Assembly: GCA_017613735.1 (NCBI GenBank)
Contig: JAGADF010000009.1
Span: 124,001-188,000, forward strand
Reading direction: 5' to 3'
Source of the DNA: Clostridia bacterium
Lineage (GTDB): Bacteria > Bacillota > Clostridia > Oscillospirales > Acutalibacteraceae
DNA length: 64,000 nt
Under the pieces are notes generated by a model. The model did no database searches. It was not told where the DNA came from and saw nothing but the letters and a program-made list of their open reading frames with translations. Below are positions 1,532 through 42,010 of the stretch, one piece after another (the first letter of the stretch is position 1; every line of letters starts with the position of its first letter). A program made the translations under genes and the position numbers.

Positions 1532-1560
1532 AAAAAAGACTCCGTCCCGAAAGGGACGAA
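1532..1560 (-). terminator. T-box-controlled intrinsic terminator
   Basis: On the minus strand TTCGTCCC and GGGACGGA pair around a TTTC loop and are followed by a run of Ts. It lies immediately after the T-box core and before the pheS ribosome binding site, as expected for the terminator alternative of a T-box leader. Confidence 0.88.
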
Positions 1561-1779
1561 GCCGTAAACTCCGCGGTACCACCCTGATTTTTGCATTTGA
1601 GCAAACACTCTTATTCCTTTAACGGGGAAGTCCGTCGCCGCCTACTCGTTACCTTTAAGCGCCGCCGCTCGGAAGTGAACTTCGTTTTTTCATTATGCTG
1701 ACCGTTCTTTCAGCCGATGAAACGGTCTCTCTGAAGCAACCGAAAAAATTACTCTCTTCGTCAAAGCGTTTATTTTTAC
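1532..1779 (-). promoter_or_regulatory. T-box leader (tRNA-Phe-sensing) of pheST
   Basis: The minus strand carries the T-box core GGTGGTACCGCGG (about 1585-1571), which pairs with the acceptor end of uncharged tRNA. Further upstream are the Stem I elements GACGAAGAGAGTA (near 1760-1748) and CAGAGAGACCG. A TTC triplet, matching a Phe specifier, occurs in AACGAAGTTCACTTCC (near 1685-1670). The core is followed directly by an intrinsic terminator. The family mechanism is that uncharged tRNA-Phe stabilises the antiterminator and permits pheST transcription. The exact specifier triplet is inferred from the downstream genes and this local match. Confidence 0.93.
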
Positions 1780-31476: not shown

Positions 31477-32565
31477 ATGGAACAGACAGGAAAAAATATG
31501 CTTGACGCATTACTTAAAAAAGGTAAGGCAACGGGCAAGCTGACCACGCACGAAATCGACGATGTTATAGTCGAAATGGACCTTGACATTGAAGAGTGGG
31601 ACAAGATTTACGATACAATTGAGGCGCAGAATATTCAGATTATTGACGACCTCGGCGACGCTGCTCTTGCGGACATCTCGTTTGAGGTTGAAAGCGAAAA
31701 AGCGTCTGATTCAGGGTCTCCCGATTCAAAGAACGAGGGCATTGAAGACCCCGTAAAGGCTTATCTTAAGGAAATCGGACGCGTTCCTCTTCTTACGAGT
31801 GAAGAGGAAATCGAACTTGCTACAAGAATTGCAGACGACGACGAGCAGGCTAAAAAACGCCTTGCCGAAGCTAACCTTCGTCTTGTTGTCAGTATCGCCA
31901 AAAGATATGTCGGCAGGGGAATGCAGTTCCTTGATCTGATTCAGGAGGGCAACCTCGGACTTCTTAAAGCGGTTGACAAGTTCGATTATACAAAGGGCTT
32001 TAAATTCTCAACCTATGCAACCTGGTGGATAAGACAGGCTATTACAAGAGCTATTGCCGACCAGGCGAGAACAATCCGTATTCCCGTTCACATGGTTGAA
32101 ACGATAAACAAGGTTAAAAAGACAATAACTCTTCTTCTCCACGAAAACGGCAGAGACCCGACCGCCGAAGAGGTTTCGGAATATCTCAATATGCCCGTTG
32201 ATAAGGTACGCGAGATTATGCGCGTAGCTCAGGAGCCTGTTTCGCTTGAAACGCCTATCGGTGAGGAGGAGGACAGCCACCTCGGCGATTTCATTCCCGA
32301 CGACGACGCGCTTGCTCCCGAAGAAGCCGCTTCAATGATGCTTCTTAAGGAACAGCTTGACGACGTTCTCAGTACGCTTACGCCCCGTGAAAAGAAGGTT
32401 ATTCAGCTTCGTTTCGGGCTTGAGGACGGCAGACAGCGCACTCTTGAAGAGGTCGGCGAGGAATTCGGCGTTACGAGAGAGCGTATTCGTCAGATTGAAG
32501 CCAAGGCTCTTCGTAAGCTTCGCCATCCGAGCAGAAGTAAAAAGCTTAAGGACTTTTTAGGTTAA
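31477..32565 (+). CDS. rpoD: Primary sigma factor RpoD (SigA)
   Basis: Housekeeping sigma factor of 362 aa. A compact region 1.1 (about 1-60) is followed by region 1.2 ([18 protein letters not shown]). Region 2 ([29 protein letters not shown], then [13 protein letters not shown]), region 3 and region 4.2 ([26 protein letters not shown]) follow. The short form without the large non-conserved insert is typical of Firmicutes SigA. This sigma factor should recognise the TTGACA/TATAAT promoters listed in this window. Confidence 0.97.
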
Positions 32566-32602: not shown

Positions 32603-32631
32603 TTGACATTTTTTTTACACGTTGCTATAAT
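32603..32631 (+). promoter_or_regulatory. Consensus sigma-A promoter for the cobalamin operon
   Basis: Perfect TTGACA (32603-32608) and perfect TATAAT (32626-32631) separated by exactly 17 nt. It is the best promoter match in the window, so strong transcription can be expected when the riboswitch permits. Confidence 0.9.
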
Positions 32632-32649
32632 GAATTTGCAAATTAAATA

Positions 32650-32775
32650 TTCGCACTGCGGTCTTTTTACTTAATCGTAAAATGTAATAGGGAATCTCGG
32701 TGAAAATCCGTCGCAACAGCCATTACCGTAATTTGAGTTTAAGCTCATTAAGTCGGAATACTTCCCGCAGGCGCG
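32650..32775 (+). promoter_or_regulatory. Cobalamin riboswitch (aptamer)
   Basis: The conserved cobalamin aptamer elements appear in order. First comes AATAGGGAATCTCGGTGAAAATCC (32685-32709), matching the AATAGGGAA...GGTGnAAnTCC core. Then come CAACAGCC and ACCGTAA, the variant of the CAGCCCCCGC-ACTGTAA arm. Last is AAGTCGGAATACTTCCCGC, matching AAGCCAGGAGACCTGCC. CTGCG (32656-32660) can pair with CGCAG (32766-32770) as P1. The usual behaviour is repression of downstream genes when a cobalamin is bound. The B12 form recognised cannot be told by eye. Confidence 0.85.
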
Positions 32776-32822
32776 GTTTTTAGCATTTGCTATGCCTTGG
32801 GCACTTGAAGGCGTAACCGGTT

Positions 32823-32846
32823 AAAGCCATTTGTCAATGGCTTTTT
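32823..32846 (+). terminator. Riboswitch expression-platform terminator
   Basis: AAAGCCATT and AATGGCTTT form a 9-bp stem around TGTC, followed by a short T run. It lies between the aptamer and the first gene, so ligand-dependent premature termination is the likely control step. The alternative antiterminator pairing is not obvious by eye. Confidence 0.75.
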
Positions 32847-32907
32847 GGTGTTGCGTTTTTGTGTTAACAAAAACGCTTATTTTATTTATGAAAGGTTGGT
32901 ATTAACA

Positions 32908-35061
32908 ATGAAAAACAAAAAAGTGCTTAGATTATTATCGCTGGTTACTTTAATCTTTATTCTGGCGAACACGTTTGCCGTTGTCGGATTTGCTTCAGGC
33001 GATAACGCTGATGTTTACGTAACAATTGCCAACAACGGCGCTCCCGTTGTTTACAATGCACCTGTCAGCGTTTCTGACGTAGACGGCGACGACGCAGTGA
33101 CAATCAATGACGCATTGATTATCGCTCACGCTCAGTATTATTCTGGGGGAGAAAGCGGCTATGAAACTGCCGTTTCTCAATATGGGCTTGGCATTACCAA
33201 GCTCTGGGGTAATACAAATAACGGAAGCTTTGGTTACTATGTAAACGACGCATCTGCCTGGAGTCTTACCGACCTGCTTAATGACGGTGACAATCTTTAT
33301 GCTTTCTGCTATAAGGATGCTGAAGGCTATTCGGACAAATATGCCTATTTCAATATCAAGTCATTATCCGACGTCGTTGAGGGTGAATCGTTTGATGTTA
33401 CTCTTAAAATGCAGGGCTATGACGAAAGCTGGAATCCTGTCGAAATTCCCGTTGCAAATGCAATTATTACAATCGACGGCGTTGATACCGATTTCGTAAC
33501 TGACGAAAACGGTGTTGCTTCGGTTACAATTGAGGATTCCTTGAAGCATATTATCAGCGCAAGACCTTCAGAAGATTCAATGATTATTACTCCTGCCGTA
33601 ATTGAAGTTAAGGGCAATGAAACAGACCTTGTTTGTGATTTCGGCGGAAACACTTATTATTACTGCAATAATTCTGCTCAGAGCGGTTGGGTAGTATTTG
33701 ACGGTATCAACTATTGCTTTGGCTCTGACGGCGCATTGACAAAAAAAACAGTTGATACATTTGTTACAATTGCAAATAACGGAGCTCCCGTTGTATACAA
33801 TGCGCCCGTATCGGTAACCGACGTTGACAACGACGGCATGTTTACGATTAACGACGCTCTTATTGTAACTCACACTTTGTACTATTCAGACGGTGCGAGC
33901 GGATATGAAACGGCAACTACTCAGTACGGACTTGGCATTACAAAGCTCTGGGGCAATACAAATAAGGGCTCATTCGGATATTATGTAAATAATGTATCTG
34001 CCTGGAGCCTTTCTGATTCACTTGTAAACGGAGATTATCTTTATGCTTTCTGCTATAAGGATGCTGAAGGCTATTCGGATAAATATTCCTATTTTAATGT
34101 AACCGAGCTTAATGAAGTTAATGTCGGTGAATCATTCAACGTAACTCTGAAGATGCAGGGCTATGACGAAAGCTGGAATCCTGTTGAACTTCCCGTTGTA
34201 AATGCAATTATTACAATCGACGGCGTTGATACCGATTTCGCAACTGATGAAAACGGCGTAGCTGCAATCAGAATTGATGATTATGACAAACATATAATCA
34301 GTGCAAGAACAACAACTGAGGGCCTTATTATAACCCCCGCTGTTATTGACGTTATCGGTGAGAATAGGGAAATCGTATGCGATTTTGGCGGCAATACTTA
34401 TTACTATATTGACAATGCTGTTCAGTCAGGCTTTGCTGCTGTTGACGGAAAGACATGCTACTTCGGCGCAGATGGCTCCATGGTTAAAAAGCAGCTTGTT
34501 ATAATTGATGGCAAAAAGTATTATTTCGGTGCTGACGGCGCTATGTACACAAAGAGATTAATCTCTGTCAGCGGCAAAAAGTATTACATGGGCGCTGACG
34601 GTGCGGCATATACAAAGAGACTTATTTCCGTAAACGGCAAAAAGTATTATATGGGCGCTGACGGCGTCGCTTATACAAAGAGACTTATCTCCGTAAACGG
34701 TAAGAAGTATTACATGGGCAAGGACGGCGTCGCTTATACAAAGAAACTTATTTCCGTAGACGGCAAGAAGTATTATATGGGCTCCGACGGAGTTGCATAT
34801 ACAAAGAGACTTATTTCCATTGACGGCAAGAAATACTATATGGGCTCCGACGGAGTTGCATATAAGTCAAGACTCATCTCCTTAAGCGGTAAGAAATATT
34901 ATCTCGGTAAGGACTGCATTGCCTATAAGTCGAAGTTCGCTTCACTTGACGGCAAAAAGTATTACTTCGGTTCCGACTGCGTAATGTATAAGAGCAAGAC
35001 GTTCAGCGTAAACGGCGTTAAATACATAGCCGATTCAAACGGCGTCTGCAAAAAGAAATAA
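32908..35061 (+). CDS. Secreted wall-bound protein with two tandem DUF4430/transcobalamin-like domains (putative cobalamin capture protein)
   Basis: 717 aa. A signal peptide spans about 1-30. Two tandem units (about 35-283 and 284-505, period 249 aa) follow. Each has a DUF4430/transcobalamin C-terminal-like beta domain (TINDALI...YGLGITKLWGNT...GSFGYYVN...GDxLYAFCY) with an EF-hand-like DxDxD loop (DVDGDDAVTINDA; DVDNDGMFTINDA). A beta-sandwich segment with NAIITIDGVDTDF closes each unit. Residues 511-717 are about ten 20-residue cell-wall-binding-type repeats (GKKYYMGADGVAYTKRLIS). I start at ATG 32908, with AAAGG 12 nt upstream; the longer frame from 32845 would add residues before the signal peptide. 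B12 binding is inferred from the fold match and riboswitch control. Confidence 0.78.
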   Translation: MKNKKVLRLLSLVTLIFILANTFAVVGFASGDNADVYVTIANNGAPVVYNAPVSVSDVDGDDAVTINDALIIAHAQYYSGGESGYETAVSQYGLGITKLWGNTNNGSFGYYVNDASAWSLTDLLNDGDNLYAFCYKDAEGYSDKYAYFNIKSLSDVVEGESFDVTLKMQGYDESWNPVEIPVANAIITIDGVDTDFVTDENGVASVTIEDSLKHIISARPSEDSMIITPAVIEVKGNETDLVCDFGGNTYYYCNNSAQSGWVVFDGINYCFGSDGALTKKTVDTFVTIANNGAPVVYNAPVSVTDVDNDGMFTINDALIVTHTLYYSDGASGYETATTQYGLGITKLWGNTNKGSFGYYVNNVSAWSLSDSLVNGDYLYAFCYKDAEGYSDKYSYFNVTELNEVNVGESFNVTLKMQGYDESWNPVELPVVNAIITIDGVDTDFATDENGVAAIRIDDYDKHIISARTTTEGLIITPAVIDVIGENREIVCDFGGNTYYYIDNAVQSGFAAVDGKTCYFGADGSMVKKQLVIIDGKKYYFGADGAMYTKRLISVSGKKYYMGADGAAYTKRLISVNGKKYYMGADGVAYTKRLISVNGKKYYMGKDGVAYTKKLISVDGKKYYMGSDGVAYTKRLISIDGKKYYMGSDGVAYKSRLISLSGKKYYLGKDCIAYKSKFASLDGKKYYFGSDCVMYKSKTFSVNGVKYIADSNGVCKKK
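33010..34422 (+). repeat. Internal tandem duplication (two 249-codon units)
   Basis: Units 33010-33756 and 33757-34422 encode the duplicated domain pair. Patches are nearly identical at the DNA level, for example around 33300-33350 and 34047-34097 (the AFCYKDAEGYSDKY codons) and around 33405-33440 and 34152-34187 (the KMQGYDESWNPVE codons). Other parts have diverged freely. Confidence 0.85.
34438..35055 (+). repeat. 60-bp tandem repeats encoding wall-binding modules
   Basis: About ten 20-codon units of the GKKYYxGxDGxxYxKxxIS type, the central ones nearly identical in DNA. They are in frame within the surface protein and have no spacers. Confidence 0.85.
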
Positions 35062-35087
35062 ATATTTTACGGGGTTTTATTAATTAA

Positions 35088-36926
35088 ATGAAATCTAAAA
35101 TTTGCAAAAGCATAATATGTACTCTGCTGATTATTTCTTCATTAATCGGCTCTGTGCATTGCTTTGCAAAAAGCTATGCCGCCGATGAGGTCAATACCCT
35201 TGTCGGCGGTATTGTCGCTTATCGCGCCGCGTCATATAATACTAAAAACGAGCAGGGCATTATTGATTATTACGCTTCTCACGAAATGACTCTCGGCGGC
35301 GAATGGTATGTTCTTGCTTTTATTCAGAACGGGCTTGAACTGGATTATTCCTCGTATGAAAAGAACCTTATAAAATATCTTAAAAACAATGAGGTCTATT
35401 CCGCGACCTCAAGAGAAAAGTTTGCCCTGACTCTTCTCGCTTTAAAATCCGCGGATTCATTTTCAAGGCAGTATATTAAAGACGTAACGAACGAAGCAAT
35501 TGGCAAGCAGGGCATAATGAGCCTGATTTTCGGACTGCATCTTCTGAATAACGGATGTAAAAGCAGTGAATATACGCCCTTAAAGCTTGCCGATAAAATT
35601 ATATCTCTTCAGAATCCCGACGGCGGATGGGCAAATTCAGGCGATAAAAGCGACGTAGACGTAACCGCTATGACGCTTGAATCGCTTTACCCTTACCGCA
35701 ATTCATATTCTTCCCAGATTAATAAGGCCGTTGATTTGCTTTCTTCAAAACAGAGCGAAAACGGCGATTACCAGAGCTACGGCGCATATAATGCCGAAAG
35801 CACGGCTCAGGTTATTATTGCTTTGTCCTCGCTGGGCATTAACTGCTCGACGGACAACAGATTTATTAAAAACGGAAATACGGTCCTTGACGGACTTAAC
35901 AGATACAGAAACAATGACGGCAGTTTTTCGCATAAATACGGCGAGGACGCCAATAACAGCGCGGTTTTTCAGGCGTTGAACGCCCTTGTCGCGTATTCAA
36001 GATTTTTAAAAGGGAACGGGGCGTTTTACAGTTTTGACGTCACTGACGAAAAAACAACCCGCGCAAGCGTTCCCGATACTGCTTCCTCTTCAAGCGAAAA
36101 AGAAAAAACAACAAAGCACGATTCTTCCGCTGACGAAATAACCTCGGCGGGCGCTGTTTACAATGAAGAAACCGCTTCACAGGATAACGGTTTGACAAAT
36201 CCTTCTTCCGACGGTAATACCGATTCGCTTATTCAGAATAATGACGGCGAGACTTTGGGTATTGATGAAACAGTATCGGAAAACGGGAACACGAATACTG
36301 TTTCTCCGCTTAACGGAATCCCCGGCGGAACCAATATTTCATTTGCAGACGGTATATCTTTATCAAAGGAATTAAAGATAAAAATTGCCGTCTCGATAAT
36401 CATCCTTTCCGCTGCGGTTTTATGTTCGATTATTCTTTATATTCTTAAAAAGCGTAATAAGAAAAACTTTATTGTTATAGCCGCGGCGGCGATTATTCTT
36501 ATTGCCGGCGTATTTTTCATAAGGATTCAGCGCGCGGACGATTACTATAATTCTACCGTCGTTAAGGACAAAACGGCAGGCGTTGTAACGCTGAGCGTAA
36601 GGTGCGACACTATTATCGGAAAGGAAGGCGCGCCCGATAATCCGGTTATTCTTGAAAAGAGCGAATACCCCATAAAAGACGGCGATACGGTTTATAATAT
36701 TCTTGCCGAGGCCCTTCAGGAAAACGGAATTTTATTCGAACACAATTCCTCTTACTATATTAGCGGCATAAACAATCTTTATGAGTTTCAGTTTGGTGAT
36801 TTATCGGGCTGGATGTATCGCGTAAACGGCGAAACTCCGTCAGTCGGGTGCGGTGAATACTTCCTTAAGGACGGCGACGAAATAGAGTGGCTTTACACCT
36901 GCGAAATAGGGAACGATTTGAACTGA
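35088..36926 (+). CDS. Membrane-anchored transcobalamin/intrinsic-factor-like protein (putative cobalamin receptor)
   Basis: 612 aa. A signal peptide (about 1-31) is followed by an alpha/alpha-barrel domain (about 35-310) of the prenyltransferase/terpenoid-cyclase type with SLQNPDGGWANSG (173-185) and YRNNDGSFSHKYG (273-285) turns. A Ser/Thr-rich linker (318-428), TM1 (431-453), a basic KKRNKKN loop and TM2 (461-480) come next. Last is a DUF4430 domain (496-607) with SGWMYRVNGETPSVGCGEYFLKDGDEIEW features. The helical hairpin puts both folds outside the cell. An alpha-barrel plus this beta domain is the architecture of vertebrate intrinsic factor and transcobalamin. It sits between the wall protein and EcfT in the cobalamin operon. 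The role as receptor is inferred; DUF4430 proteins may have other ligands. Confidence 0.8.
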   Translation: MKSKICKSIICTLLIISSLIGSVHCFAKSYAADEVNTLVGGIVAYRAASYNTKNEQGIIDYYASHEMTLGGEWYVLAFIQNGLELDYSSYEKNLIKYLKNNEVYSATSREKFALTLLALKSADSFSRQYIKDVTNEAIGKQGIMSLIFGLHLLNNGCKSSEYTPLKLADKIISLQNPDGGWANSGDKSDVDVTAMTLESLYPYRNSYSSQINKAVDLLSSKQSENGDYQSYGAYNAESTAQVIIALSSLGINCSTDNRFIKNGNTVLDGLNRYRNNDGSFSHKYGEDANNSAVFQALNALVAYSRFLKGNGAFYSFDVTDEKTTRASVPDTASSSSEKEKTTKHDSSADEITSAGAVYNEETASQDNGLTNPSSDGNTDSLIQNNDGETLGIDETVSENGNTNTVSPLNGIPGGTNISFADGISLSKELKIKIAVSIIILSAAVLCSIILYILKKRNKKNFIVIAAAAIILIAGVFFIRIQRADDYYNSTVVKDKTAGVVTLSVRCDTIIGKEGAPDNPVILEKSEYPIKDGDTVYNILAEALQENGILFEHNSSYYISGINNLYEFQFGDLSGWMYRVNGETPSVGCGEYFLKDGDEIEWLYTCEIGNDLN

Positions 36927-36927
36927 T

Positions 36928-37806
36928 ATGAGAAAAATTGAAAGACAAAATCCAATATCGGTTTTTCTGTACTTTTTGCTGTCGGCATTTCTGACGGCAT
37001 TCGGTACGGATATTGTAATTTCGTTCATTTCGCTTCTCGGCTTCGGTCTTTTGTATATATTAAAGGACGAAAACAGAGGGAAGAAAAGGCATATTTTTAT
37101 TCTTATACTTTTTCTCGTTTCAGCATTCATCAATCCCGTTACCAATCATCGCGGAGTGACGGCTCTCTTTGTTGTCAACGATAATCCCATAACGCTTGAA
37201 GCCTTTCTTTACGGCGTGTGTATGGCAGGCACGATTTGTTCCGTTATATACTTATTTTCGTCATTCAGCCTTATAATGACAAGCGACAAGCTCATTTATG
37301 TTTTCGGCATTATTTCGCCTAAAATCGCTTTGCTGCTGTCAATGGCATTAAGATATATACCGTTGTTTATAAGGCAGTATAAAAGAGTTAAAATGTCGCA
37401 GAAGGCTATGGGGCTTTTTAAGGACGGCAACATCGTCGACCGTTTCAGAGGTAACGTCCGCGTGTTTTCGATTATGGTTACCTGGGCGCTTGAAAACGGA
37501 ATTATAACTGCTGACAGTATGGCGGCGCGCGGTTACAGTGAAAAAAGGCGGACTCCGTTTTCATTTTACCGATTTACGAAAAGCGATTTTGTCTTTCTTT
37601 CGGTATCGCTTGTTTTGTTCGGTATCGTTTCCGCAGGAAAAATCGCGGGGATTATAGGAACGGCATTTTACCCCGAATTCGTACCTGCCGGGTTAAATAT
37701 TAAATCAATAATGGTTTATATATGTTTTTCGGTTATGGCGTTTATGCCGAGCATTATTGAAGCAAAGGAGGAATTGAAATGGAAATACTTAACGTCGAAA
37801 ATCTGA
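36928..37806 (+). CDS. ecfT: ECF transporter transmembrane component EcfT (CbiQ family)
   Basis: The 292-aa EcfT/CbiQ-family scaffold couples ATP hydrolysis to substrate release by the S component. It has four to six hydrophobic helices, with the first pair near residues 8-55. The conserved coupling-helix motif reads MAARGYSEKRRTPF (the Ala-Arg-Gly signature); a second A-R-G-like region is RYIPLFIRQYKRVKMSQKAMG. It starts 2 nt after the preceding stop and overlaps ecfA by 28 nt. Being encoded with its own ATPase and S component suggests a dedicated (group I) transporter. Confidence 0.9.
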   Translation: MRKIERQNPISVFLYFLLSAFLTAFGTDIVISFISLLGFGLLYILKDENRGKKRHIFILILFLVSAFINPVTNHRGVTALFVVNDNPITLEAFLYGVCMAGTICSVIYLFSSFSLIMTSDKLIYVFGIISPKIALLLSMALRYIPLFIRQYKRVKMSQKAMGLFKDGNIVDRFRGNVRVFSIMVTWALENGIITADSMAARGYSEKRRTPFSFYRFTKSDFVFLSVSLVLFGIVSAGKIAGIIGTAFYPEFVPAGLNIKSIMVYICFSVMAFMPSIIEAKEELKWKYLTSKI

Positions 37807-39404
37807 CTTTCAGTTACCCGTTAAATGAACATAATACGCTTTCTTCCGTTTCTTTTTCTCTTGAAAAAGGCGATTTTGCCGTGCTTTGCGGTCAGACGGG
37901 AAGCGGTAAAACAACCCTTTTAAGAATGCTGAAGCCGTCTCTTTGTCCGAGGGGAGAGAGAAGCGGAAAAGTAAGCTTTTACGGAACCGACTTATACGAA
38001 AATAAAACAAATGAAAAGAAAATAGGTTTCGTAATGCAGAATCCCGAGCAGCAGATTGTTACCGATAAGGTCTATCATGAGCTTGCGTTTGCGCTTGAAA
38101 ACCAGAACCTGCCCAATAACGAAATAAGCAGGCGTATTGCGGAAGCGGCGCAGTTTTTCGGTATTTGTGATATTTTTGAAGAGAATACCGATATTCTTTC
38201 CGGCGGTCAGAAGCAGCTTCTTAATCTAGCGTCGGTATCGGTTATGCAGCCCGATTTACTTATACTTGACGAGCCCACGGCTCAGCTTGACCCCGTGGCT
38301 GCGGCGGAATTTATGACCGTTCTTAAAAAGCTGAATACCGAAATGGGAATAACAGTTCTTATCTCCGAGCACAGACTGGATGATTTGCTCAGCCTCTGTA
38401 ATAAGCTTATTGTCATTGATTCGGGCGAGATTACAGTTTGTGACGAAACGTCAAACGCCATAAGAAACATTAATAAGGACGATAAAATAATCGAATATAT
38501 GCCCGCTACCGTAAGGCTCTATAAATCGGTTAAAACCGATTCGGACTGTCCGCTTACGGTTAATGACGGAAGGCGTTTTCTTGAAAGAAATTTCAGTAAC
38601 GGTATAAGGGAATACAAAACGGATGAAACAGTTCCCGTCGGCAATAAAGCAGTTGAGATAAACGATTTGTATTTCAGGTATTCTAAGGATGAAAGCGACG
38701 TTCTTTCGGGACTTAATCTTACGGTGTATGAAAACGAGATTTTTTCAATTCTCGGCGCGAACGGAAGCGGTAAAACCACCGCGCTTTCCTGTATTGCGGG
38801 TTTGATAAAACCTTACAGCGGCAAGGTTAAGGTGTTCGGCAAAAAGGTAAGCGAATACAAAAATAATTCGCTTTACATTAACTGCGTAACGTTGCTTCCT
38901 CAGGATATAGGTACGGTCTTTCTTAAAAATACGGTTAAGGAAGAGCTTGAAGAGGTTAAAGCGAATCTTGACGGCTTTCCGTTTGATTTGTCGGGTTTAC
39001 TGGACAGACATCCGTATGACCTGAGCGGCGGTGAGCAGCAGCTTGTCGCGCTTGCAAAGGTGCTTGCCTCAAAACCGAAAATTCTTATTCTTGACGAGCC
39101 TACAAAGGGACTTGACAATTGCTTTAAAAAGATATACGCGTCGGTTTTAAAACAACTGAAAAATGACGGCGTTACAATTATCGCCGTAACTCACGACGTT
39201 GAATTTGCCGCGATGATTTCCGACAGATGCGCTTTTCTTTTCAGGGGAAGAGCCGTATCGGTCGATAATACGCATTCGTTCTTTACGAAAAACAGCTTTT
39301 ACACAACCTGCGCCGACAGAATGGCCCGCGGTTTTTACGACGGCGTTGTCAGCGTTGAGGAAATAGTTGAAATGATAGGACTTAACGGCGGTGAAATACT
39401 TTGA
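37779..39404 (+). CDS. ecfA: ECF transporter ATPase, two fused ATP-binding domains
   Basis: 541 aa containing both EcfA and EcfA' as one chain. NBD1 has Walker A GQTGSGKTT, the Q-loop region FVMQNPEQQIVTD, signature LSGGQKQLL and Walker B LLILDEPTAQLDP. NBD2 has Walker A GANGSGKTT, signature LSGGEQQLV and Walker B ILILDEPTKGLDN. Both halves look catalytically intact. ATG 37779 follows a strong AAAGGAGGAATT site inside the end of ecfT. The S component starts within its last codons, so expression is coupled. Confidence 0.93.
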   Translation: MEILNVENLTFSYPLNEHNTLSSVSFSLEKGDFAVLCGQTGSGKTTLLRMLKPSLCPRGERSGKVSFYGTDLYENKTNEKKIGFVMQNPEQQIVTDKVYHELAFALENQNLPNNEISRRIAEAAQFFGICDIFEENTDILSGGQKQLLNLASVSVMQPDLLILDEPTAQLDPVAAAEFMTVLKKLNTEMGITVLISEHRLDDLLSLCNKLIVIDSGEITVCDETSNAIRNINKDDKIIEYMPATVRLYKSVKTDSDCPLTVNDGRRFLERNFSNGIREYKTDETVPVGNKAVEINDLYFRYSKDESDVLSGLNLTVYENEIFSILGANGSGKTTALSCIAGLIKPYSGKVKVFGKKVSEYKNNSLYINCVTLLPQDIGTVFLKNTVKEELEEVKANLDGFPFDLSGLLDRHPYDLSGGEQQLVALAKVLASKPKILILDEPTKGLDNCFKKIYASVLKQLKNDGVTIIAVTHDVEFAAMISDRCAFLFRGRAVSVDNTHSFFTKNSFYTTCADRMARGFYDGVVSVEEIVEMIGLNGGEIL

Positions 39405-40087
39405 GCCTGACTAAAAACGAAAAACTTAAAAGAGTATTCAGCTTCCTTCTTCCCTGCGTATTTATGCCCGTAGTTATTATTATCGGCTCTCTTTACGCGG
39501 GCGGGCAGGGGTATGCTTTGCTGAGCCTTATTGTGGCTCTTTTATCGCTCGTTCTTTTTATCTGCGGATTTGAGAGCAAAAGCACCGGCACAAGGCGGCT
39601 TGTAATAGTTTCGATTATGGTTGCGCTCAGCGCGGTAGGCCGTCTTATACCCGTATTTAAGCCCGTAACCTTTATTGTTGTTATTACGGGCGTTACCTTA
39701 GGCCCTCAGGCGGGATTTCTTACAGGCGCGTTTTCAGCGGTTATTTCAAACATTACCTTCGGTCAGGGGCCGTGGACTCCGTTTCAGATGTTCGCCTGGG
39801 GTATGATAGGCTTTGTGGCGGGACTGCTTTCAAAGCCTCTGACAAAAAGCAGAATATCGCTTATTGTCTATCTCGTTATTTCCGGTGTGCTTTATTCGCT
39901 TATTATGGACGTATGGACGGTTCTGTGGTATGAGCAGGGCTTTGTTGCCGAGCTTTATAAAGCCGCTGTTATATCGGCAATTCCCGTTACCGCGGTATAT
40001 TCAGTTTCAAACGTCATATTTGCATTGCTGCTTGCGAAACCTATGTGCGACAAGCTTAACCGGGTAAAAATAAAATACGGTGTTTAA
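39401..40087 (+). CDS. ECF transporter S component, cobalamin type (CbrT-like)
   Basis: 228-aa substrate-binding membrane subunit with about six to seven helices. It contains VKPVTFIVVITGVTLGPQ and GAFSAVISNITFGQGPWTPFQMFAWG in two adjacent blocks. The SNxxFGQGPWTPxQM pattern is, to my knowledge, typical of predicted cobalamin S components (CbrT-like). Start TTG 39401 overlaps the ecfA stop by 4 nt. The cobalamin riboswitch at the head of the operon independently supports B12 or a cobalamin precursor as substrate. Confidence 0.83.
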   Translation: MSLTKNEKLKRVFSFLLPCVFMPVVIIIGSLYAGGQGYALLSLIVALLSLVLFICGFESKSTGTRRLVIVSIMVALSAVGRLIPVFKPVTFIVVITGVTLGPQAGFLTGAFSAVISNITFGQGPWTPFQMFAWGMIGFVAGLLSKPLTKSRISLIVYLVISGVLYSLIMDVWTVLWYEQGFVAELYKAAVISAIPVTAVYSVSNVIFALLLAKPMCDKLNRVKIKYGV

Positions 40088-40113
40088 CGGCTTAAAAATA
40101 AGCCGTTTTTTTA
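40086..40113 (+). terminator. Terminator of the cobalamin operon
   Basis: AACGGCTTA and TAAGCCGTT form a 9-bp stem across AAAA, followed by seven Ts. The left arm begins with the last two bases of the S-component stop codon. Confidence 0.92.
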
Positions 40114-40189: not shown

Positions 40190-42010
40190 ATGAAAAGAAG
40201 AGAAGATGTAAGAAATATCGCTATCATTGCCCACGTTGACCACGGCAAGACAACGCTTGTTGACCAGATGCTTCGCCAGAGCGGTACCTTCCGTGAGAAC
40301 GAGCAGGTTCAGGAAAGGGTAATGGATTCAAATGACCTTGAAAGGGAAAGAGGCATTACAATCCTTTCCAAGAATACGTCCGTTCATTACAAGGGCGTTA
40401 AAATCAATATTGTCGACACTCCCGGTCACGCTGATTTCGGCGGCGAGGTCGAAAGAATAATGCAGATGGTAGACGGCGTTCTTCTGCTTGTTGACGCGTT
40501 TGAGGGCTGTATGCCGCAAACACGTTTCGTGCTTAAAAAAGCTCTTAATTTAAGAAAGACGGTTCTTGTTGTCATTAATAAAATCGACCGCCCCGGCGCG
40601 CGTCCTGCCGAGGTTATTGACGAAGTGCTCGATTTATTCATTGAGCTCGGCGCGGATGAGGACCAGCTTGAATTTCCCGTCGTTTACGCGTCGGCAAAGG
40701 ACGGCTATTCTTCACTTGACCCTGAGGACAGAGACGGAGATATGAGACCTCTTCTCGACTCGATTCTTGAGAATATTAATCCTCCCGAAGGCGTAGTTGA
40801 AGCTCCCGTACAGATTCTTATTTCATCTCTCGGTTATGACGATTATGTCGGAAGAATCGGAATCGGCAGAGTTGAACGCGGCGTCATTAAAAGAAATGAG
40901 CAGGTCGTTTTATGTAAAACAGACGGCTCTCAGGAAAATGTCAAGATTTCAAAACTCTATCAGTTTGAAGGACTTAAAAGGCAGGAGGTTGAAGAGGCTG
41001 CGGCAGGCGATTTAATCGCAATTTCGGGCATTTCCGACCTTAATATAGGCGAAACAATATGCGACAGCGAATGTGTTGAACCTCTTCCGTTCGTTAAAAT
41101 TGACGAGCCGACTCTTTCGATGAATTTTATAGTAAACGACAGTCCGTTTGCCGGAAGAGAGGGTAAATTCGTAACCTCGCGAAATTTACGCGACAGACTT
41201 TTCAAAGAGGTTGAAACGAACGTCAGTATGAGAGTCGAGGAGACCGAAAGCACAGATACCTTTAAGGTCTCGGGCAGGGGAGAGCTTCATCTTTCAATAC
41301 TTATTGAAACAATGCGCCGTCAGGGTTATGAATTTCAGGTTTCAAGACCTAAGGTTATTATGAAGCAGGAAAACGGCAAAACCCTCGAACCGATGGAATT
41401 GCTCATAGTTGAGGTTCTTGAGCAGTATGTCGGCGCGGTAATGGAAAAAATCGGTTCCCGAAAGGGCGAGCTTGAGAATATGGGCGCCCGTCAGGGCGGA
41501 GCTACGCACCTTGAGTTTAAAATCCCCGCGAGAGGGCTTATAGGCTACCGTTCCGAGTTTATGACCGATACCAACGGCAACGGAATTATGAATAACCTTT
41601 TTGCAGGTTATGAGGAATATAAGGGCGATATACAGACCCGTGAAAGAGGCTCAATTGTTGTTCACGAAACGGGTACTACAACGGGTTACGGACTTTTCAA
41701 TACTCAGGACAGAGGACGCCTTTTCGTAGGCCCCGGCGTTGACGTTTATGAGGGGATGATTGTCGGCGAATGCGCTAAAAATGAGGATATTACCTGTAAC
41801 GTTTGTAAGTCAAAGCATCTTACGAATACGCGAGCTTCGGGCTCTGACGATGCGTTGAGACTTGTTCCTCCGAGCAACCTGAGTCTTGAACAGTGTATGG
41901 AGTTTATTAAGGACGACGAGCTTCTTGAGGTTACGCCGAAGTCGTTGAGATTAAGGAAAAAGATACTCGCAAAGGACTTAAGATTAAAAGAACAGTTCAG
42001 AAATAAGTGA
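40190..42010 (+). CDS. typA: Translational GTPase BipA/TypA
   Basis: Ribosome-associated GTPase needed for 50S assembly and stress growth. The 606-aa protein has G1 AHVDHGKT (14-21), the switch I segment RERGITI, G3 DTPGH and G4 NKID. EF-G-like domains II, III and V follow, and the BipA-specific C-terminal domain contains [18 protein letters not shown]. Length and domain order are standard. The ATG follows GGGTGAG. The downstream thioesterase starts 8 nt after the stop. Confidence 0.96.

What the first reader, a model, noticed from the sequence alone, without database searches (positions are those of the whole stretch)
32603..40087. Predicted vitamin B12 capture-and-import system pairing transcobalamin-like surface proteins with a dedicated ECF transporter
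Seen: one promoter, a cobalamin aptamer and a terminator precede five co-directional genes ending in a terminator. The first two products carry DUF4430/transcobalamin C-terminal-like domains, one on a wall-binding tail and one on a membrane hairpin; the last three form a complete ECF transporter with a CbrT-like S component. Known: cobalamin riboswitches control B12 uptake or synthesis, and ECF transporters with CbrT-type S components import cobalamin. Inferred: the wall protein captures B12, the membrane protein passes it on, and the S component imports it. This would be a Gram-positive parallel to the BtuG-BtuB relay of Bacteroidetes.
Basis: partly seen in the sequence, partly recalled or inferred. 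Interest (0 to 1): 0.88.

Follow-up and report, generated by a model that had tools for sequence, protein, structure and literature searches.

The report
B12 scavenging operon with transcobalamin-like proteins
A gut bacterium that appears unable to make vitamin B12 carries a B12-sensing RNA switch followed by five genes for two surface proteins, one built like the animal B12 carriers, and a matching B12 importer; the idea was predicted in 2007, several details here look new, and I found no report of a test.

Summary
A 12/12 sigma-70 promoter, a cobalamin aptamer, terminator-like hairpins and five co-directional genes lie between sigA and typA. Gene 1 carries two DUF4430-like domains too diverged for Pfam; two proteins from the same operon slot elsewhere link them. 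Genes 3-5 encode EcfT, fused EcfA-EcfA' and an S component whose best solved relative is cobalamin-specific CbrT. All five gene types occur in 56 of 80 related loci, and 56 of 80 have a correctly placed cobalamin aptamer. The host genome has MetH and a single cobalamin riboswitch match, and shows neither a BtuC-type permease above cut-off nor CbiC. B12/cobamide uptake is the likely job. Burroughs et al. 2007 already predicted B12 scavenging by such proteins beside CbiO/CbiQ. Apparently new: the riboswitch link, CbrT-type S component, membrane-split architecture, an invariant toroid His, an EF-hand-like loop with invariant His in gene 1, and wall-repeat anchoring in this genus.

The parts
32603..32631 (+). 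sigma-70-type promoter (extended -10)
   Evidence: 12 of 12 consensus positions, 17-nt spacer
32643..32783 (+). cobalamin riboswitch aptamer (short form)
   Evidence: RF00174 30.3 bits, E 5.2e-6, below gathering score 31.5; conserved in relatives
32823..32876 (+). two consecutive terminator-like hairpins between aptamer and gene 1 (expression platform)
   Evidence: both form in the predicted fold of the leader; switching mechanism inferred
32908..35061 (+). gene 1: secreted wall protein with two DUF4430-like domains, Ig-like domains and choline-binding-type repeats
   Evidence: Pfam PF19127 5.7e-18, PF01473 1.5e-17; two copies of the N-terminal unit at about 32911-33627 and 33745-34368
33076..33111 (+). 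EF-hand/dockerin-type loop (D-x-D/N-x-D spacing, D/E at position 12) in first domain of gene 1; invariant His follows at 33127-33129
   Evidence: D30, D34 and H47 of the aligned fragment kept in 54 of 54 rows, D32 in 50, D41 in 49
34399..35040 (+). wall-binding repeat tail of gene 1
   Evidence: among 69 homologues only the genus sibling L032 has it
35088..36926 (+). gene 2: membrane-anchored transcobalamin-like protein (toroid + TM hairpin + DUF4430)
35190..36023 (+). alpha/alpha toroid domain of gene 2; invariant His282 at 35931-35933
   Evidence: Prenyltrans 1.3e-7; His in 59 of 59 rows
36390..36527 (+). transmembrane hairpin of gene 2, short positive loop inside
   Evidence: two hydropathy-called TM segments past residue 60 in 59 of 59 rows, loop more positive than flanks in 59 of 59
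36681..36899 (+). DUF4430 (transcobalamin C-terminal-like, SLBB beta-grasp) domain of gene 2
   Evidence: PF14478 6.7e-20, 71.8 bits (cut-off 23.8)
36928..37806 (+). gene 3: EcfT (CbiQ family)
   Evidence: PF02361 4.9e-10
37779..39404 (+). gene 4: EcfA-EcfA' fused double ATPase
   Evidence: two ABC_tran stretches, ECF_ATPase_1 317.2 bits (cut-off 315)
39401..40087 (+). gene 5: ECF S component, CbrT-like
   Evidence: PF07155 2.5e-12, PF12822 7.8e-11; 6fnp_A 1.7e-6 alone, 2e-16 by profile
40086..40107 (+). terminator-like hairpin

Best explanation
The operon is a cobamide (vitamin B12) scavenging system repressed by B12 through the leader aptamer. When B12 is scarce, the terminators are bypassed and five proteins are made. 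Gene 1, held in the cell wall, concentrates cobamides outside the membrane with two DUF4430-like domains. Gene 2, tethered by a transmembrane hairpin, closes its outward-facing toroid and its outward-facing beta-grasp domain around one cobamide, as transcobalamin does. It then delivers the cobamide to the CbrT-like S component, which the EcfT-EcfAA' module drives inward; the B12 serves methionine synthase. Shown here: gene content, topology pattern, conservation, co-location with aptamers, S-component affinity to CbrT, and a genome with MetH and without a detected BtuC-type permease over cut-off or CbiC. Inferred: cobamide binding by genes 1 and 2, the order of transfer, the fold of genes 1 and 2, and the direction of the switch.
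For: Aptamer, the only RF00174 match at E <= 0.001 in its genome. In 80 named relatives, all five gene types in 56 (the same 56 under a stricter adjacency rule) and a correctly placed aptamer in 56 (RF00174 in 46 loci, 41 of them placed so, plus 15 more from a clade model). In 100 family genomes drawn without regard to these genes (the window's own included), 23 of 71 RF00174 matches have a gene-2-like hit downstream within 8 kb on the same strand. S component: only two solved sequences match its profile at E <= 1, 6fnp_A (2e-16) and 4hzu_S (8.3e-4); 6fnp is the ECF-CbrT structure, whose cobalamin transport is experimental (PMC5997447, passages). That chain A is the CbrT subunit is inferred from its match to an S component; the table names it only 'Membrane protein'. 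Toroid + DUF4430 is the transcobalamin plan (PMC1796856). TM hairpin with positive inner loop in 59 of 59. EcfA-S fusions in two loci point to a dedicated pairing. MetH present; FecCD only one match below cut-off (20.6 of 26.5 bits); no CbiC. No family recurs in more than 5 of the 116 neighbours scanned.
Against: No sequence match to solved transcobalamin or intrinsic factor. Gene 1's domain is not recognised by Pfam, and a comparison of the gene-1 alignment with a broader DUF4430 alignment gave only 2.5% probability. 24 of 80 loci lack a correctly placed aptamer: 19 have none found, 5 have one elsewhere (3 of the 19 hold under 300 bases upstream). Presence of a gene-2-like protein and of an aptamer across the 100 family genomes is not associated (30/15/31/24, p = 0.31), and 15 of 45 genomes with such a protein show no aptamer (strict filters). 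The genome is a 91%-complete MAG, so absences are provisional; CbiC alone stands for the corrin pathway, and the sub-cut-off FecCD match was not followed up.
Confidence: 0.72

Rival explanations
1. Same machinery, but the physiological ligand is an incomplete or different corrinoid (cobinamide, pseudocobalamin or other gut cobamides) rather than B12 itself.
For: CbrT also carries cobinamide (PMC5997447, passages); the rumen and gut hold many cobamides (recalled). Not tested here.
Against: The genome's single cobalamin aptamer match and MetH point to complete cobamides; salvage genes were not searched.
Confidence: 0.13
2. Genes 1 and 2 are wall/adhesion or scaffold proteins co-regulated with a B12 ECF transporter that works alone, as ECF-CbrT does in liposomes.
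For: Purified, reconstituted ECF-CbrT transports without a capture protein (PMC5997447, passages). Five loci of 80 show gene 2 next to S without EcfT/EcfA in the locus, so module composition is loose.
Against: Invariant His and other residues in the toroid and DUF4430, frequent pairing of gene 1 with gene 2 (69 of 80), and the transcobalamin-like domain pair.
Confidence: 0.1
3. The ECF transporter imports a different vitamin or cobalt, and the aptamer regulates it for other reasons.
For: Pfam names the S component riboflavin-type and NCBIfam weakly folate-type, below cut-off; EcfT is in the CbiQ family.
Against: The only solved sequences matched are 6fnp_A of ECF-CbrT (2e-16) and 4hzu_S (8.3e-4); aptamer co-location.
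Confidence: 0.05

Closest known systems
Transcobalamin-like SLBB clade in low-GC Gram-positives, predicted B12 scavengers (Burroughs et al. 2007, PMC1796856)
   Same: Secreted or surface DUF4430-type domain, toroid fusion, second paralogous SLBB protein in the operon, CbiO and CbiQ neighbours, B12 scavenging proposed (passages)
   Different: The words riboswitch, choline and dockerin do not occur in its main text (figures not held); the passages read describe no CbrT-type S component, no TM hairpin between toroid and beta-grasp, and no EF-hand-like loop
ECF-CbrT of Lactobacillus delbrueckii (PMC5997447, PDB 6fnp)
   Same: CbrT-like S component with EcfT and two ATPases
   Different: There CbrT shares a group II module and sits in nrdJ-cbrS-cbrT-pduO; here the module is dedicated, the ATPases are fused and two surface proteins are co-encoded
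Annotation 'Additional lipoprotein component of putative cobalamin ECF transporter' and a DUF4430 gene beside rtpR in Lacticaseibacillus rhamnosus (PMC9963975, passages)
   Same: The idea of an extra surface component for a cobalamin ECF transporter is already in annotation; a DUF4430 gene lies near rtpR (that RtpR uses B12 is recalled)
   Different: Annotation names in a proteome table; whether the two genes are the same kind was not checked, and the passages show no functional test
Animal transcobalamin, intrinsic factor, haptocorrin
   Same: Toroid followed by DUF4430-type beta-grasp domain
   Different: Soluble, no TM hairpin, endocytic delivery (recalled); no direct sequence match found
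BtuG2-BtuB and BtuH2 of Bacteroides (PMC6977713, passages; PMC8941943, passages and one section)
   Same: Surface B12 capture feeding a transporter; riboswitch-controlled loci; a BtuH homologue in Eubacterium siraeum lies near an ECF-like cobamide transporter
   Different: BtuG is a beta-propeller; no BtuH match among the solved structures listed for gene 1; an outer membrane is involved

Membership tests
Cobalamin riboswitch (RF00174) | score at or above the curated gathering score | tested here: not met
   30.3 against 31.5 bits
Cobalamin riboswitch (RF00174) | conserved aptamer at this place in relatives, with kept pairs | tested here: met
   46 of 80 loci by RF00174, 15 more by a model built from 22 leaders; 56 of 80 correctly placed; 5 of 9 consensus pairs show changes on both sides
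Cobalamin riboswitch (RF00174) | binds a cobalamin and changes expression | not testable with these tools
   needs in-line probing or a reporter
ECF transporter | EcfT, two ATPases, S component | tested here: met
CbrT-type S component | closest to CbrT among solved S components | tested here: met
   6fnp_A 2e-16 against 8.3e-4 for the next; identity of chain A as CbrT inferred
CbrT-type S component | transports cobalamin | not testable with these tools
   needs uptake assay
Transcobalamin/intrinsic-factor-like protein (gene 2) | alpha/alpha toroid followed by DUF4430/SLBB domain, secreted | tested here: met
   PF00432 and PF14478 in order; at E <= 0.001 PF14478 in 59 of 59 rows, PF13243 in 38 and PF00432 in 29 of 59; N-terminal hydrophobic segment
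Transcobalamin/intrinsic-factor-like protein (gene 2) | direct sequence match to solved TC/IF/haptocorrin | tested here: not met
   none listed
Transcobalamin/intrinsic-factor-like protein (gene 2) | fold and cobalamin binding | not tested
   structure prediction switched off; binding needs the bench
DUF4430/SLBB domain (gene 1) | PF14478 match | tested here: not met
   window protein none at E <= 1; 0 of 54 members at E <= 0.0005 (the E <= 1 list shows 25 of 104 families, so weaker matches are not excluded)
DUF4430/SLBB domain (gene 1) | remote homology | tested here: inconclusive
   profile-profile score 25.9 against shuffled mean 13.2, max 22.9 (0 of 150), but probability only 24.6%, 15.1% with a merged DUF4430 set and 2.5% for A8 against A3; same-slot proteins in L005 and L086 hit PF14478 (35.5, 41.4 bits) and the gene-1 profile end to end, though not its SLBB part alone
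BtuG | beta-propeller | tested here: not met
   no such domain in Pfam results
BtuH | sequence match to the solved BtuH B12-binding domain | tested here: inconclusive
   no such match for gene 1; the presence of BtuH in the PDB copy was not checked

The most novel reading that the evidence does not exclude
Gene 2 is a transcobalamin split across the membrane surface: toroid and beta-grasp domain hang on a TM hairpin and shut over a cobamide directly above the S component, with invariant His282 near the cobalt. Gene 1 is a calcium-dependent wall relay with its own invariant His. The pair would be a living bacterial form of the ancestor from which animal intrinsic factor and transcobalamin were taken, and the first Gram-positive wall-to-membrane B12 relay.
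Probability: 0.33. Interest if true: 0.82.

Novelty: new variant of a known kind. Interest (0 to 1): 0.56.

Why it matters
[quoted passage not shown] This cassette gives a compact, riboswitch-marked, five-gene system in which surface capture, hand-over and import can be tested in one operon. It also bears on where animal B12 carriers came from: Burroughs et al. 2007 proposed transfer from low-GC Gram-positives, and nothing in the listings of my ten paper searches shows a test of a bacterial transcobalamin-like protein.

Tried and rejected
Default Rfam scan: aptamer missed by 1.2 bits; recovered with the E-value threshold. Direct profile comparison of whole gene 1 and gene 2 aligned only signal peptides and was replaced by domain-wise comparison; a broader DUF4430 alignment against gene 1 gave 2.5% with the same register. 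PDB searches for transcobalamin relatives by sequence found squalene cyclases for the toroid and nothing meaningful for the C-terminal domain. Presence/absence association of gene-2-like proteins with aptamers was not significant. Rows other than Cobalamin are all below their families' gathering scores and were taken as chance. Neighbour census found nothing recurrent beyond 5 of 116. Single-sequence fold of the leader was uninformative (z -1.89). BtuG membership rejected, BtuH not supported (table).

Counts and what was left out: the 80 loci are the best of 555 and may omit the window's own genome and very near ones, as that call says. Gene-2 alignment A2 used the window plus 58 of the 79 homologues that passed my length and stop filter; one of them, L108, in fact runs off its contig. 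A3 used a window fragment plus 53 of 68 filtered gene-1 homologues; A4 the window plus 35 of 62 filtered S components. EcfA counts come from a profile that also matches other ABC ATPases; a recount demanding an EcfA start within 1.5 kb of the EcfT end gave the same 67 and 56 of 80. The sortase-like count rests on a loose pattern. The neighbour census scanned 116 of 229 candidate ORFs. The phylum tally used 25 aptamer rows picked by eye from the cut list plus the own-genome row; 22 of these 26 precede a listed DUF4430 match, in 19 genomes, which is a lower bound and not a rate.


Full report
WHAT IS THERE. Between a sigA-like gene (31477-32565) and a typA/bipA-like gene (40190-42010) the + strand carries one self-contained unit (these two gene names are my reading of the ORFs, not a call). 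A perfect extended sigma-70 promoter lies at 32603. A short-form cobalamin aptamer lies at 32643-32783 (RF00174, 30.3 bits, E 5.2e-6; gathering score 31.5). Two terminator-like hairpins follow (32823-32876), then five genes to 40087 and a closing hairpin at 40086-40107. By eye, GGTTTT at 32775-32780, at the 3' side of the aptamer, can pair with AAAGCC at 32823-32828, the 5' arm of the first terminator. This is a plausible antiterminator, so B12 would favour termination; that is inference.

IS THE APTAMER REAL. It is the only RF00174 match at E 0.001 in its genome, and the genus sibling has one in the same place (23.7 bits). In 80 named relatives found by gene 2 alone (best 80 of 555), RF00174 matches lie inside 46 loci. 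A covariance model from 22 leaders, window included, finds 15 more at E below 0.001 in the 34 loci without one. In all, 56 of 80 loci have an aptamer on the + strand whose end lies from 250 bases inside to 1.5 kb before the start of gene 1, gene 2 or EcfT; 5 have one elsewhere and 19 have none found. Five loci have two well-placed aptamers, one before gene 1 and one before EcfT. In 100 family genomes drawn without regard to these genes, own genome included, 23 of 71 aptamers are followed on the same strand within 8 kb by a gene-2-like match. Against this, mere presence of the two is not associated across those genomes (p = 0.31), and 15 of 45 genomes with such a protein show no aptamer. At phylum level PF14478 occurs in 91 of 299 genomes and RF00174 in 280 of 299; at least 19 genomes, own included, show the two together among 26 rows that I picked from cut lists.

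GENE 2. N-terminal hydrophobic signal, toroid (PF00432 1.3e-7; at E 0.001 PF13243 in 38 and PF00432 in 29 of 59 rows), low-complexity linker, TM hairpin, DUF4430 (71.8 bits; 59 of 59). Two TM segments after residue 60 are called by hydropathy in 59 of 59, and the short loop between them is more positively charged than the flanks in 59 of 59, which places both globular domains outside. Toroid then DUF4430-type domain is the transcobalamin/intrinsic factor plan; in transcobalamin the two sandwich B12 (PMC1796856). His282 in the toroid and Trp575 in DUF4430 are invariant, 59 of 59. That human transcobalamin uses a toroid His as a cobalt ligand is recalled, so the analogy is only a lead.

GENE 1. 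Signal-like N-terminus, two copies of a unit (DUF4430-like domain plus Ig-like domain), then choline-binding-type repeats. The repeats resemble those of several clostridial toxins and glucan-binding proteins in the PDB, which is a shared wall/carbohydrate-binding module and no sign of toxicity. Of 69 homologues, 42 end in a sortase-like motif (loose pattern) with a TM segment, 13 in a TM segment without that motif, 13 in neither, and 1 (the genus sibling) in wall repeats, so the repeat tail is a variant of this genus. Pfam sees no DUF4430 in the window protein at E 1 or in 54 members at E 0.0005. Support for homology: profile-profile score 25.9 against 150 shuffles (mean 13.2, max 22.9), 16.9 for the reversed profile and at most 14.5 for 13 segments of genes 3-5, though the program's own probability is only 24.6%; the earlier controls against toroid, S component and Ig part gave 0.1 to 2.3%. 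A broader DUF4430 alignment gave the same register but only 2.5%. Proteins in the same operon slot in L005 and L086, with the same order of signal, domain, Ig and anchor, hit PF14478 over its cut-off and the gene-1 profile end to end; the SLBB part of that profile alone does not hit them, so that match rests largely on the other regions. The gene-1 family has an EF-hand/dockerin-like acidic loop and an invariant His (54 of 54) that L005 and L086 lack (sequences printed).

GENES 3-5. EcfT (CbiQ), fused double ATPase, S component. The S profile (36 rows) matches only two distinct solved sequences at E 1: 6fnp_A (2e-16) and 4hzu_S (8.3e-4). 6fnp is the ECF-CbrT structure, a proven cobalamin transporter; that chain A is its CbrT subunit is my inference, since the table names it only 'Membrane protein'. 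In two loci the ATPase and S genes are one ORF, so the pairing looks dedicated. The genome has a second EcfT elsewhere.

CONSERVATION. In the 80 loci gene 1 is found in 69, EcfT in 70, EcfA in 67, S in 65, all five in 56 (and the same under a stricter rule); some misses are contig ends. Gene order is mostly 1-2-T-A-S or T-A-S-1-2. Around the cassette no family recurs in more than 5 of 116 neighbours scanned (of 229 candidates), so it behaves as a unit.

HOST NEED. The window's genome (1.65 Mb, 90.9% complete) has a MetH-type methionine synthase (S-methyl_trans, pterin, B12-binding and B12-binding_2 domains) and two radical SAM proteins with marginal B12-binding domains. Its only FecCD (BtuC-type permease) match is below the Pfam cut-off (20.6 of 26.5 bits), and CbiC is not found. 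It therefore looks like a B12 user that must import it, with this operon the evident route; incompleteness leaves room for error.

LITERATURE. Burroughs et al. 2007 (PMC1796856; passages) predicted most of the concept. Putnam et al. 2022 (PMC8941943; one section and passages; author name recalled) note a BtuH homologue near an ECF-like cobamide transporter in Eubacterium siraeum. A Lacticaseibacillus proteome paper (PMC9963975; passages) carries the annotation 'Additional lipoprotein component of putative cobalamin ECF transporter' and a DUF4430 gene near rtpR. Ten searches of the open library gave no title or abstract start that reports an experimental test of a bacterial transcobalamin-like protein; most listed papers were not opened, and subscription journals are mostly absent.

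VERDICT. B12/cobamide uptake: very likely. Capture and relay by genes 1 and 2: likely, unproven. It is a new variant of a predicted kind rather than a new kind.

Noticed in passing
L073:13077-15722 and L075:13143-15752: ECF ATPase and S component fused in one reading frame (881 and 869 aa), an arrangement that I had not met for an ECF transporter
   Followed up: partly
L037, L038, L040, L044, L064: Gene 2 followed directly by the S component with no EcfT/EcfA found in the locus, suggesting use of a shared module
   Followed up: no
L054:7024-8319, L092:7349-8644, L094:7372-8664, L099:7301-8596: An amidohydrolase resembling 5'-deoxyadenosine/SAH deaminases (all below the models' cut-offs) lies just upstream of the aptamer in these four loci
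   Followed up: partly
G015 contig 5, 74225-74863: A second gene-1-type domain inside a 1671-aa open frame, about 31 kb from the operon copy
   Followed up: no
window 1549-1773, - strand: T-box leader (124 bits) before what reads as pheS-pheT; ordinary
   Followed up: yes
L090, L101, L103, L104, L105: Five loci with T-A-S-1-2 order and no aptamer found by either model; perhaps another regulator
   Followed up: no
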